Assembly: GCF_013401515.1 (NCBI RefSeq)
Contig: NZ_CP058529.1
Coordinates: 744,001 to 808,000, forward strand
Reading direction: 5' to 3'
Length of the DNA stretch: 64,000 bases
DNA from: Halorarum halophilum
GTDB taxonomy: Archaea; Halobacteriota; Halobacteria; Halobacteriales; Haloferacaceae
Notes under the pieces: generated by a model
The model's input: the letters and a program-made list of their open reading frames with translations, nothing else
Databases searched by the model: none
What the model was told of the DNA's origin: nothing
Shown: positions 34,614-37,145 of the stretch, one piece after another
Layout of the letters: every line of letters begins with the position of its first letter
How positions within the stretch are numbered: position 1 is the first letter of the stretch
Made by a program: the position numbers and the translations under genes

Positions 34614-36167
34614 TCACCGCTCCGCGTCGGGCGTCCGCTCGTCGCCGCCGAACCACTCTCGCCAGAAGGGCTGGAAGGCGTCCGACGATTCGGTCAGCGA
34701 CTCCCACCGCGTGAGCCCGCGCTCCTCGTCCGTCCCCGGTATCGTGTTGTCGAGGACGAGCGCGGCCAGCCCGCCGACGGCCATCCCCGTCGTGCCGACG
34801 ACGTACATCGTGCCCGCGAAGACGGACGTGCCGAGAGCCGGGCCGAGCAGCGGGACCGTCGCCATCCCCGCCTGGAACGCCTCGGCGCTGCCGACGGCGC
34901 CCATGTACTCGGGGATCGCCAGCCCGACGAACAGCGCGAACCCGACGATGAAGACGTTTCGCGAGGAGTTGAGGTCGACGTACGTCAGGTTCGAGAGGCC
35001 GACCGCGACGATCTGGCCGAACATGACGACGAAGAGGCCCCCGACGATGGGGTCGGGGATGGTCGCGACGAGCTGTCCGACGTAGCCGACATAGCCGACG
35101 ACGAGCATCATCACCGCGCCGATCTGGACGACGAACCGGGAGGCGACGCCCGTCAGCCCGATGGCGCCGATGTTCTCGGAGTAGGAGGTCGAGCCGCCGG
35201 TCCCCATGATCCCGGAGAAGACGTTCATGATCCCCTCCATGCCGATGCCGTGGTTGATGCGCTCCTCGCTCGGCGCGCCGCTACCGACGAGCCTGGCGAC
35301 GGCGTGGTAGTCGCCGAAGCTCTCGACGATGGAGGCGAGGACGCCGGCGAACATCCCGATGGCGAAGGAGAGCTGGAACGTCGGCATCCCCCACTGCAAC
35401 GGGTAGATCGGTACCACCGCCGGCGCGTCCGCCACGGTGCCGAGGGCGACGTAGCCCGGCGCTCCAGAACCGTAGACCCCGGCGACCGACAGGGCCGCGG
35501 CGACGACCCAGGCGATGGAGACCCCGAGGATGACTGGGAACAGCCGGAACGCCCAGTGTCGTCGGTCGAGGTACTGGGAGAACGCGAGGACGAGCAGCAG
35601 CGTCAGCCCGAGCAGCCACCAGTCGTTCGTCGCGGCGGTGACCTGCGGGACGTCAAACAGCGCGAGGCCGATGAGGACGATGGTCGGCGCGATAGTCACC
35701 GGGGAGAGGTACTGCCGGAGTTTCCCGACGATGCCGAAGTAGCCGATGGCGATCTCCACCAGCGCCGCCACGATGATGGCGCCCTGTAGCGCCTGGAGGC
35801 GAGTCTGCCAGAGTGGCTCGCCGGCGGTCGCCCCGACCACGGTGACGATCGCGATCGCGGGCGCGAGCATCGAGAACGGCGCCCCCTGCACGATGGGGTA
35901 GCGGTTCCCGAACGTCGTCTGCGCCAGCGTCGCGACCCCCGAGACGACGAAGAACGTCCCGACGAACCGGGCGGTCTCGCCGGTGGGCATCCCCAGCGCC
36001 CCCGCCAAAATGAGCGGCACTGCGACGTTCGCGCCGACCATCGTCAGGTAGTGCTGGAGGCCGAGGACGACCGAGGCCGACAACGACGGGCGGTCCTCGA
36101 TGCCGTACTCGACGAACGACGTCCGATCCGACTCCCTCCCGGACCCTCCGCTCTCGTCTCCGTTCAC
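34614..36167 (-). CDS. NCS2-family uracil/xanthine permease
   Basis: A 517-residue nucleobase-cation symporter. Family motifs include 'LGLQHYLTMVGANVAVPLILAGAL' (helix 1), 'QGAPFSMLAPAIAIV' and 'ESFGDYHAVARL' in helix 8, and 'NVFSGIMGTGGSTSYSENIGAIGLTGV' (split motif of helices 9-10 with the substrate region). About 14 helices. Specificity (uracil, xanthine or urate) cannot be set from sequence alone. The start is a GTG at 36167, placed just before the acidic N-terminal tail. Confidence 0.92.
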   Translation of the reverse strand: MNGDESGGSGRESDRTSFVEYGIEDRPSLSASVVLGLQHYLTMVGANVAVPLILAGALGMPTGETARFVGTFFVVSGVATLAQTTFGNRYPIVQGAPFSMLAPAIAIVTVVGATAGEPLWQTRLQALQGAIIVAALVEIAIGYFGIVGKLRQYLSPVTIAPTIVLIGLALFDVPQVTAATNDWWLLGLTLLLVLAFSQYLDRRHWAFRLFPVILGVSIAWVVAAALSVAGVYGSGAPGYVALGTVADAPAVVPIYPLQWGMPTFQLSFAIGMFAGVLASIVESFGDYHAVARLVGSGAPSEERINHGIGMEGIMNVFSGIMGTGGSTSYSENIGAIGLTGVASRFVVQIGAVMMLVVGYVGYVGQLVATIPDPIVGGLFVVMFGQIVAVGLSNLTYVDLNSSRNVFIVGFALFVGLAIPEYMGAVGSAEAFQAGMATVPLLGPALGTSVFAGTMYVVGTTGMAVGGLAALVLDNTIPGTDEERGLTRWESLTESSDAFQPFWREWFGGDERTPDAER

Positions 36168-36362
36168 GCTCGGACCCCGAAGCGACGTCTAATAAGTTGA
36201 CCTTCTCCGGAACGGGTTGCGTCCCCGAGGTCGTTTCCGGGAACCCCAATCGTTCGCGTCGTCGCCGCCGGAGCTAGTCGAGCAGATGGAGGCAGAAGGC
36301 GTCCGACGGGACGAAGGGGATTTTCCCTGGAGTTATTAGGCAGAGTCTGAAGTCTCTGGTAC

Positions 36363-36773
36363 ATGAAGCGCCGGTCAGTTCTCGCCGTCCTCGGCGTCGG
36401 TGCCGGCGGGTGGATCGGATACGATCGATTCCGATCCGGTCGAGAGGGACGGATCTTCTGGCGGGAGATGGCAGTCGACGCCGGCGGAGAACCGGGGTCG
36501 TTGATCATCATGACCGTGTCGCGTGAATCCGATGGGACAGTGAGTCATACGATTCACGACGAGTACACGGACGCGTTCGACGACGGAACGTACGTTTCGA
36601 GGGATCTCCACCGCGCGCTCGAACGCGAGTTCGGCCCCGACGAACCCTACTACCTCGTTCGATACGGGGCCCACGACTGCAACGGTGTCCCCGGCGACGA
36701 GGGTGGCGACGCCGTCGAAGTATCGCGGAAGGAGTTCAACGATCTCCGGATCGGCGACTGCGTGAAGAAATAG
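36363..36773 (+). CDS. Hypothetical exported protein of atypical composition
   Basis: A 136-residue protein beginning 'MKRRSVLAVLGVGAGGWIGY', a short twin-arginine-like or Sec-like signal without a lipobox. The rest is a small alpha/beta domain ('PYYLVRYGAHDCNGVPGDEGG', 'EFNDLRIGDCVKK') with two Cys that could form a disulfide. TTATTA at 36333-36338 gives a leaderless start. Base use is lower in GC than that of neighbouring genes, and it lies just left of a tRNA-Tyr duplication scar, so it may be acquired. No family recognised. Confidence 0.7.
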   Translation: MKRRSVLAVLGVGAGGWIGYDRFRSGREGRIFWREMAVDAGGEPGSLIIMTVSRESDGTVSHTIHDEYTDAFDDGTYVSRDLHRALEREFGPDEPYYLVRYGAHDCNGVPGDEGGDAVEVSRKEFNDLRIGDCVKK

Positions 36774-36907
36774 ACCGGGGTCGGCGACCCGATTGCGAAA
36801 CACGCGAGGTCGGTGGCTGTACTCGGCAAAATTGGACCCCCGTAGATTCGATGCGAACGAGCGTCGAACTGCGCGCTATCCCGTGAATCCGGATGACATG
36901 GCTTCGA

Positions 36908-36929
36908 AGTCCGCCCTCCCCGAATTGAA
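36908..36929. repeat. Copy of tRNA-Tyr 3' end, possible attachment-site scar
   Basis: These 22 bases are identical to 37070-37091, which are the last 20 bases of tRNA-Tyr plus two flanking bases. The copy lies 162 bases beyond the tRNA on its 3' side, the arrangement left when an element integrates into a tRNA gene and regenerates its end. Only about 140 bases lie between the two copies, and no integrase is seen, so this would be a deleted remnant. Confidence 0.65.
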
Positions 36930-37071
36930 TACGCGGAGACGTTCCAGGCATGCGGCGCTTCGCGCCGTTCCGGGCGTGCGACTCCTCTCTTCAATTGGGC
37001 TCGGGGTGTACACGACGGCCGCCGCCGGCTCACTCGCTTCGCTCGTTCGCGGTGGCGGCGGCAGAATCGAG

Positions 37072-37145
37072 TCCGCCCTCCCCGAATTGAACGGGGGACA
37101 AGCCGATCTACAGTCGGCTGCTCTACCAGGCTGAGCTAAGGGCGG
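37072..37145 (-). tRNA. tRNA-Tyr (anticodon GUA)
   Basis: A 74-nucleotide cloverleaf: acceptor CCGCCCT/AGGGCGG with discriminator A, the archaeal C1-G72 identity pair, D arm GCTC-AGCCTGGTA-GAGC, anticodon arm GCCGA-CTGTAGA-TCGGC with GUA, variable loop TTGTC and T arm CCCCG-TTCAATT-CGGGG. No CCA encoded, no intron seen. TATA-like CTTAAG lies about 27 bases upstream on the minus strand. Confidence 0.96.

What the first reader, a model, noticed from the sequence alone, without database searches (positions are those of the whole stretch)
36774..37145. Duplicated tRNA-Tyr 3' end: a possible integration scar
The last 20 bases of tRNA-Tyr plus two flanking bases recur exactly 162 bases downstream of the tRNA (36908-36929 and 37070-37091). 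tRNA genes are favoured attachment sites for archaeal viruses and integrating elements, which leave such copies. The intervening 140 bases are non-coding, and the gene next to the outer copy (36363) has lower GC than its surroundings, so most of the element may have been lost.
Basis: partly seen in the sequence, partly recalled or inferred. Interest (0 to 1): 0.5.

Follow-up and report, generated by a model that had tools for sequence, protein, structure and literature searches.

The report
Mobile hairpin cassettes behind tRNA genes
The repeated tRNA end marks one copy of a small, gene-less, foldable DNA cassette that inserts right behind tRNA genes, carries a stem matched to the tRNA it sits behind, and recurs throughout the salt-loving archaea examined.

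Summary
The repeat is real: 22 identical bases at 36908-36929 and 37070-37091, the outer one 3' of tRNA-Tyr (minus strand). It is not a one-off scar. The 140 bases between plus the outer copy are one member of a recurring unit: a variable hairpin (H1), a hairpin (H2) whose left arm is complementary to the T-loop/T-stem of the tRNA it follows, and a copy of that tRNA's end. In this genome 8 of 44 predicted tRNA genes scanned on the main contig carry near-exact copies. A covariance model of H2 matches 284 of 292 genomes of the class and none seen outside it. Filled/empty comparisons show precise insertion at the tRNA end. The tRNA-sense strand is rich in C-GNA-G loops and tandem G.A pairs. Type B units form the arm beside a tyrosine-integrase gene in two genomes. 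Best reading: gene-less integrative cassettes whose hairpin is a folded attachment site moved by a recombinase in trans. Insertion is shown; enzyme and single-strand recombination are inferred. Nine literature searches found no description of the unit; tRNA remnants beside tRNAs had been noted in Haloferax.

The parts
37071..37145 (-). tRNA-Tyr(gta), host gene and presumed target
   Evidence: ARAGORN
37070..37091 (-). tRNA-proximal copy of the 22-base repeat (T-loop to 3' end of the tRNA plus flank)
37020..37062 (-). H1, variable first hairpin (about CCGCCGCC...GGCGGCGG with a GAGCGAAGCGAG tip); boundaries by eye
   Evidence: sequence; similar sequence follows tRNA-Tyr in congener G002 (L041)
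36920..36999 (-). H2, second hairpin; left arm CCCAATTGAA (36990-36999) against right arm TTCAATTCGG (36920-36929), which is the start of the outer copy
   Evidence: model R1, 60.3 bits; arm 9/10 complementary; DNA fold z -1.77, so this copy is probably partly decayed
36908..36929 (-). outer copy of the tRNA-Tyr 3' end
36908..37069 (-). the whole repeating unit (H1, H2, outer copy), type A
   Evidence: by comparison with units at other loci and filled/empty sites

Best explanation
The unit (36908-37069) is a gene-less integrative cassette that consists, on this reading, of an attachment site only: a copy of the tRNA's T-loop-to-3'-end sequence plus hairpins. On the tRNA-sense strand H2 folds so that its base (left arm against right arm) is a duplex with the sequence of the tRNA's T-loop and 3' T-stem strand. 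A tyrosine recombinase, supplied in trans by integrative elements that use the same tRNAs, would recombine this folded site with the tRNA gene at the start of the T-loop (about G53/T54), restore the tRNA with the cassette's copy and displace the old 3' end. Repeats of the event give tandem arrays, newest unit next to the tRNA. SHOWN: precise insertion at the tRNA end in related loci; tandem and mixed arrays; arms matched to the host tRNA; a strand-biased loop and G.A signature; type B architecture at the integrase-side end of integrase elements in two genomes. INFERRED: that type A units such as this one use the same kind of enzyme, the cleavage point, recombination of a folded single strand, action in trans, and that this very copy was inserted (no empty site was found in its own genus).
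For: Filled/empty pairs starting at the first bases after tRNA or copy: L038/L035 377 bp 82%, L286/L089 250 bp 86%; arrays differing by one unit next to the tRNA: L098/L286 98%, L075/L038 96%, L331/L307 86%. Arm complementary to its own tRNA (8/10 or better) in 49 of 71 distinct units against 2.5% for shuffles and 3.6% for other tRNAs' arms. 9 of 17 pairs with changes on both sides in 25 aligned hairpins. C-GNA-G loops in 40 of 66 clusters with an apical hairpin (shuffles mean 1.1, max 4), 47 tandem G.A steps (mean 2.8, max 7) on the tRNA-sense strand. Class-wide match, 0 of 6 non-haloarchaea, phylum draw positive only inside the order. Tyrosine integrase genes (PF00589) bordering type B architecture in L326 and L377. 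In L092 foreign-looking DNA starts right after ...CTCGGCGAG, where the copy would begin.
Against: No integrase was found next to a type A unit as its own end. Excision or current mobility is not shown. DNA folding energies do not favour one strand for a composed type A hairpin or for the window's hairpin (z -3.36/-3.42 and -1.77/-1.45); only the Lys hairpin does (-6.65/-3.07). The G.A and GNA signature could also serve an RNA. Where the copy has diverged from the tRNA the left arm follows the copy 19 times, the tRNA 11, neither 4, with some poor rows among them, which does not decide. Some model hits lie away from tRNAs (L246 E 0.0015, L247, L248 weaker; L090:16745). A unit of 100-165 bp is short for a DNA circle.
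Confidence: 0.5

Rival explanations
1. Each unit is what remains of an ordinary integrase element: integration at the tRNA, then deletion of everything but the two attachment arms.
For: Type B architecture forms the integrase-side arm of elements in L326 and L377; partial tRNA duplications of prophages are known in haloarchaea (PMC3119063, passages).
Against: Narrow size range (126 of 138 first copies at 77-146 nt), conserved H2 across the class at many tRNAs, tandem mixed arrays, and no gene remnants in the units looked at. Deletion would have to stop at the same points again and again.
Confidence: 0.22
2. The unit works as RNA: a structured 3' trailer or small RNA made by read-through of the tRNA, its arm able to pair with the tRNA's T-arm or with the copy.
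For: Covariation of the stem; tRNA-sense strand bias of the loops; class-wide presence; conserved G.T pair at T54 in 75 of 120 hairpins.
Against: Presence at a given tRNA is patchy (45 of 100 tRNA-Tyr loci); filled and empty sites; no wobble preference elsewhere in the arms (14 G.T-type, 11 C.A-type mismatches); no Rfam match.
Confidence: 0.13
3. A transposase or Cas1-like integrase inserts the hairpin with a 20-25 bp target-site duplication, as spacers enter a CRISPR array.
For: Direct copies flank the insert, arrays grow next to the tRNA; casposon integrases target tRNA ends (recalled; search listing only).
Against: Does not explain why the insert's left arm matches the tRNA. No terminal inverted repeats: 12-base identity of unit ends mostly 1-5 of 12. 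No Cas1 gene was looked for.
Confidence: 0.08
4. No dedicated recombinase: the units arise by replication slippage, template switching or recombination at short repeats.
For: Short homologies and strong hairpins; identical tandem units (L181); variants at tRNA-Arg with arms in the acceptor part (L224, L276).
Against: Conserved inner H2 sequence at unrelated tRNAs across the class and absence in the rest of the phylum draw point to a specific system.
Confidence: 0.07

Closest known systems
tRNA-integrated elements of haloarchaea (IGEs of Haloferax gibbonsii LR2-5, PMC7921747; prophages of Haloquadratum, PMC3119063; HF1-group viruses, PMC7230728; passages seen)
   Same: Insertion at a tRNA gene with a duplicated tRNA 3' part; PMC7921747 also notes 11 partial tRNAs, several directly beside a full copy.
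   Different: Those are kilobase elements with integrase genes; these units hold no gene, are about 100-165 bp, folded, and form arrays.
Integron attC sites and cassettes (PMC8946536, passages)
   Same: Imperfect palindrome that folds as a single strand, with paired base, unpaired spacer, inner stem and variable end; array growth next to a fixed platform.
   Different: Arms follow each tRNA rather than one consensus; platform is a tRNA gene; no gene cargo seen; no IntI shown; in Halobacteria.
PATEs, SMRs and MITEs of Haloquadratum (PMC3119063, passages)
   Same: Short, transposase-free, palindromic mobile repeats in haloarchaea.
   Different: PATEs are described as causing no target duplication and as related to IS605 ends; these units carry a copy of the tRNA end and sit behind tRNAs.
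Casposons (search listing only)
   Same: Integration at tRNA ends with target duplication (recalled).
   Different: Kilobase transposons with Cas1 and terminal inverted repeats (recalled).

Membership tests
tRNA-targeted integrative element | Direct repeat of the tRNA 3' end flanking the insert | tested here: met
tRNA-targeted integrative element | Integrase gene between the repeats | tested here: not met
   140 bases only between the copies
tRNA-targeted integrative element | Empty site in relatives | tested here: inconclusive
   met at other loci; not found for this locus, flanks of G001 and G002 differ
Integron cassette array (attC) | Folded imperfect palindrome with stem base, unpaired spacer, inner stem, variable end | tested here: met
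   consensus structure of 25 hairpins; likeness judged against passages of PMC8946536
Integron cassette array (attC) | Conserved R boxes RYYYAAC / GTTRRRY (recalled consensus) | tested here: not met
   right arm is GTTC..., left arm varies with the tRNA
Integron cassette array (attC) | IntI gene with attI beside the array | not tested
   IntI was not searched for
Casposon | Terminal inverted repeats | tested here: not met
Casposon | cas1 gene in the element | tested here: not met
   no room for a gene in the unit; a cas1 in trans was not looked for
PATE / IS605-derived element | No target duplication | tested here: not met
   the tRNA end is duplicated
Known Rfam family | Covariance-model match over the unit | tested here: not met
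   9 loci, E up to 1: tRNAs; sot0042 and weak HgcC hits in L098 outside its units; one weak mir-3622 hit (27.6 bits, cut-off 78) overlapping the unit of L215 on the other strand

The most novel reading that the evidence does not exclude
Halobacteria host a class-wide, gene-less recombination system in which a single-stranded hairpin, its base matched to a given tRNA gene, is itself the mobile cassette: an integron-like array builder that uses tRNA T-loops as platforms and whose target can be re-set by changing an arm of about 10 bases.
Probability: 0.35. Interest if true: 0.88.

Novelty: new variant of a known kind. Interest (0 to 1): 0.7.

Why it matters
tRNA genes are well-known landing sites of archaeal mobile DNA, yet a small structured unit behind them, matched in 284 of 292 genomes of one class, has no Rfam family in the loci tested and no description in the papers I could search. 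If the folded-site reading holds, it would be a further case of site-specific recombination on single-stranded hairpins, in archaea and with arms that follow the target. It would account for partial tRNAs noted beside full copies in haloarchaea, warn against reading each as a lost provirus, and offer sites, possibly enzymes, for inserting DNA at chosen tRNA genes.

Tried and rejected
Large lost element at this locus: no gene or second core supports it; the ORF 36363-36773 has no Pfam match and no tblastn match in the other 97 of the 98 loci L040-L137. Viral origin: the 20-base tRNA end is in no viral contig; the H2 motif is in one, a chance match in coding-like DNA without a tRNA. Phage records: no match; plasmid records: one, a 987-kb Natrinema replicon. 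Known RNA family: none. Kink-turn and bulge-helix-bulge motifs: considered by eye only, bulge sizes did not fit. Gene-carrying units: none seen with model R1 in 93 loci, 1.82 Mb; 37 of 38 matches lie within 400 nt 3' of a tRNA gene, L090:16745 does not. Far second copies: 15 genomes searched, 3 had two copies, only G007 far apart, 14 kb.

Biases and limits: the 100 tRNA-Tyr loci were taken from the best matches, not from all 170 genomes, and two (L037, L135) have under 300 nt downstream. The 288-gene set includes loci fetched because they carry units, so its rates are not frequencies. One search scored at most 16 candidates a genome, so its counts per genome are lower bounds; its 8 negatives include G035 and G162, which carry units by direct reading (L081, L097), so the model also misses some. 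In one search, 11 of 79 loci had no tRNA upstream and 2 showed no motif. Model R1 contains the window's own hairpin.

Full report
The repeat. tRNA-Tyr is on the minus strand, so along the tRNA the order is tRNA, its 3' end (copy 1), 140 bases, copy 2, flank. The copy runs from the T-loop (TTCAATTCGGGG...) to just past the tRNA end.

Relatives at tRNA-Tyr. The window lies on G000:C1. The two other genomes of the genus have the tRNA but no second copy. G002 has H1-like sequence after the tRNA, then diverges (L041); it shares four of six neighbouring proteins tested but not the permease (34614-36167) nor the ORF at 36363; G001 shares none of the six in its 20-kb stretch. In the family 169 of 170 genomes match the tRNA region, tRNA-Phe matches included. 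Of 100 tRNA-Tyr loci fetched, 45 have a match of 14 or more bases to the tRNA's 3' half within 300 nt; in 43 it involves the 3' end, in L068 and L109 only the anticodon-arm part. Reading them showed two recurring types. Type A: H1, then H2 (CCGAATTGAGCAGACGAGTCRCAGCCCGG...CCGGACYGTCTCGGCGAG in many), then the copy. Type B: a copy of the anticodon arm and 5' T-stem, two hairpins, then the copy. They occur in mixed order (L075 and L098 B-A, L086 B-B, L125 A-B). The window's unit is type A.

Other tRNAs. The motif GAGCAGACGAGTCRCAGCCCG with one mismatch is in 29 of 167 family genomes and 11 of 28 genera; the reversed control pattern shows no match in the listed rows. Besides Tyr it follows tRNA-Phe, Ser and Arg, closed by that tRNA's own end, sometimes decayed; L148 in G001 is an orphan without a tRNA. 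In the own genome I scanned 44 predicted tRNA genes on contig C1 (not surely all, since the list was capped): 8 have copies with 0-1 mismatch in 19 bases (Tyr, Lys-ttt with two, Lys-ctt, Gly-tcc, Leu-taa, Arg-tct and two with anticodon cat); a ninth hit, Gln-ctg with 4 mismatches 9 nt away, I take as chance (sequences). Decayed units stand behind Arg-ccg, Val-tac and Phe. The tRNA-Ser of the window has no copy.

The arm matches the host tRNA. For 71 distinct units I took the best 10-base complement of the copy's T-loop and T-stem upstream of it: 8/10 or better in 49, against 2.5% of shuffles and 3.6% with other tRNAs' arms. In a larger, biased set (288 tRNA genes, 138 with copies, 171 units) 129 score 8 or more. 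Examples: Asn CAGGGCTCGAGCAG...GAGTTCGAGCCCTGG; Arg GGAGATTTGAGCAG...GTTCAAATCTCC. In 25 aligned hairpins 9 of 17 pairs have changes on both sides with pairing kept. The pair at T54 is G.T in 75 of 120 distinct hairpins and A.T in 43, unexplained.

Distribution. Model R1 has 8 matches in the own genome at E below 0.001, each directly behind a tRNA gene; the next, L246 at 0.0015, and the weaker L247 and L248 have no tRNA in their loci. In the class 284 of 292 genomes and 73 of 77 genera match at E up to 1e-4. In a phylum draw 31 of 196 match, all of the own order; two of the order do not; the other 163, by subtraction (18 listed by row, 145 not listed), do not. Six non-haloarchaea: 0. Of 79 loci from the class search and a named-genome scan, which overlap, 66 have a tRNA within 1000 nt upstream on the same strand, 11 have none (6 are chance matches outside Halobacteria; L268 and L324 are one site behind a 20-kb element; L326 lies behind an integrase gene; L259 and L299 not resolved) and 2 showed no motif in the scan. 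Named hosts include Halorubrum, Natrinema, Halorientalis, Haloplanus, Halobaculum and Halomarina.

Insertion. Aligning the flank after a copy with the flank after the same tRNA elsewhere gives filled/empty pairs that start at the first bases: L038/L035 (377 bp, 82%), L286/L089 (250 bp, 86%). Arrays differ by one unit next to the tRNA: L098/L286 (153 bp, 98%), L075/L038 (139 bp, 96%), L331/L307 (401 bp, 86%) (many of its 115 rows compare units with units rather than native flanks). New units therefore appear next to the tRNA in these cases.

Strand and fold. In 67 clusters of distinct H2, 66 with an apical hairpin, 40 have a C-GNA-G triloop (shuffles mean 1.1, max 4) and 47 tandem G.A steps were counted (mean 2.8, max 7) on the tRNA-sense strand; the complement has none of either, which for G.A steps is nearly so by definition. 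That C-GNA-G loops such as GCGAAGC give unusually stable DNA minihairpins is recalled; one search is a listing of papers that use such a hairpin. Arm mismatches other than T54 show no clear wobble preference (14 G.T-type, 11 C.A-type). DNA folding z-scores, sense/complement: Lys hairpin -6.65/-3.07, a composed type A hairpin -3.36/-3.42, the window's own -1.77/-1.45. So strand choice rests on the loop and G.A counts, not on energies, and this copy is probably partly decayed.

Integrases. In L326 (Halorubrum sp.) a tyrosine integrase gene is bordered on its start side by a type B unit ending in a tRNA-Phe end, then an A unit, then another B unit. In L377 (G007) a relative (62% identical; PF00589 and PF02899) borders two hairpins and a tRNA-Tyr end 14 kb from the tRNA; ARAGORN calls that stretch a tRNA-Phe, which I take as spurious. 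Other integrases of the group (L154/L324, L071, L367) lie beside a shorter core, with units outside. Type B is thus tied to an integrase attachment arm; type A is not.

Literature. Nine searches ran; none of the listings showed a description of the unit. I read passages only: PMC7921747 (11 partial tRNAs in Haloferax gibbonsii, several beside a full copy), PMC3119063, PMC8371274, PMC8946536, PMC7230728, PMC7714728. Most subscription papers are not in the library.

Conclusion. The finding opens onto a class-wide family of small hairpin units at tRNA genes. That they are precise insertions matched to their tRNA is well supported at other loci; the enzyme, and whether a folded single strand is the substrate, remain to be shown.

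Noticed in passing
G000:C4:46225-59030 (own genome, another contig): A cluster of about 20 tRNA-like matches in 13 kb on a small contig, as in tRNA-rich viruses or plasmids; no R1 match on that contig.
   Followed up: no
L247 and L248 (G000:C1:13839 and 2167671): The inner part of H2 recurs without tRNA arms and without a tRNA, in two similar surroundings of the own genome.
   Followed up: partly
L148 (G001:C1:192988): Orphan H2-like hairpin with short arms TGAGCAG...GTTCA and no tRNA nearby.
   Followed up: no
L224, L276, L183 (tRNA-Arg): Variant repeats with a 13-base copy of the T-stem/acceptor part and arms in the acceptor.
   Followed up: no
H2 hairpins, pair at T54: G.T pair in 75 of 120 distinct hairpins where A.T would be expected.
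   Followed up: no
L229 (G085), between two tRNA-Asp genes: An ORF-bearing insert of about 0.65 kb separates two tRNA-Asp genes with the same sequence in the 3' half; the second also has a unit.
   Followed up: no
L098:17781-17968: Rfam match to sot0042, 116.5 bits over its cut-off of 88, just beyond the B-A array.
   Followed up: no
window 34614-36773: Xanthine/uracil-type permease and a lower-G+C ORF without Pfam match sit between the array and genes shared with G002; both are absent from the G002 stretch.
   Followed up: partly
L092 and L305 (L305 is Halorubrum aidingense): After a type A hairpin foreign-looking DNA begins where the tRNA copy would start, perhaps an element inserted at the crossover point.
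   Followed up: no
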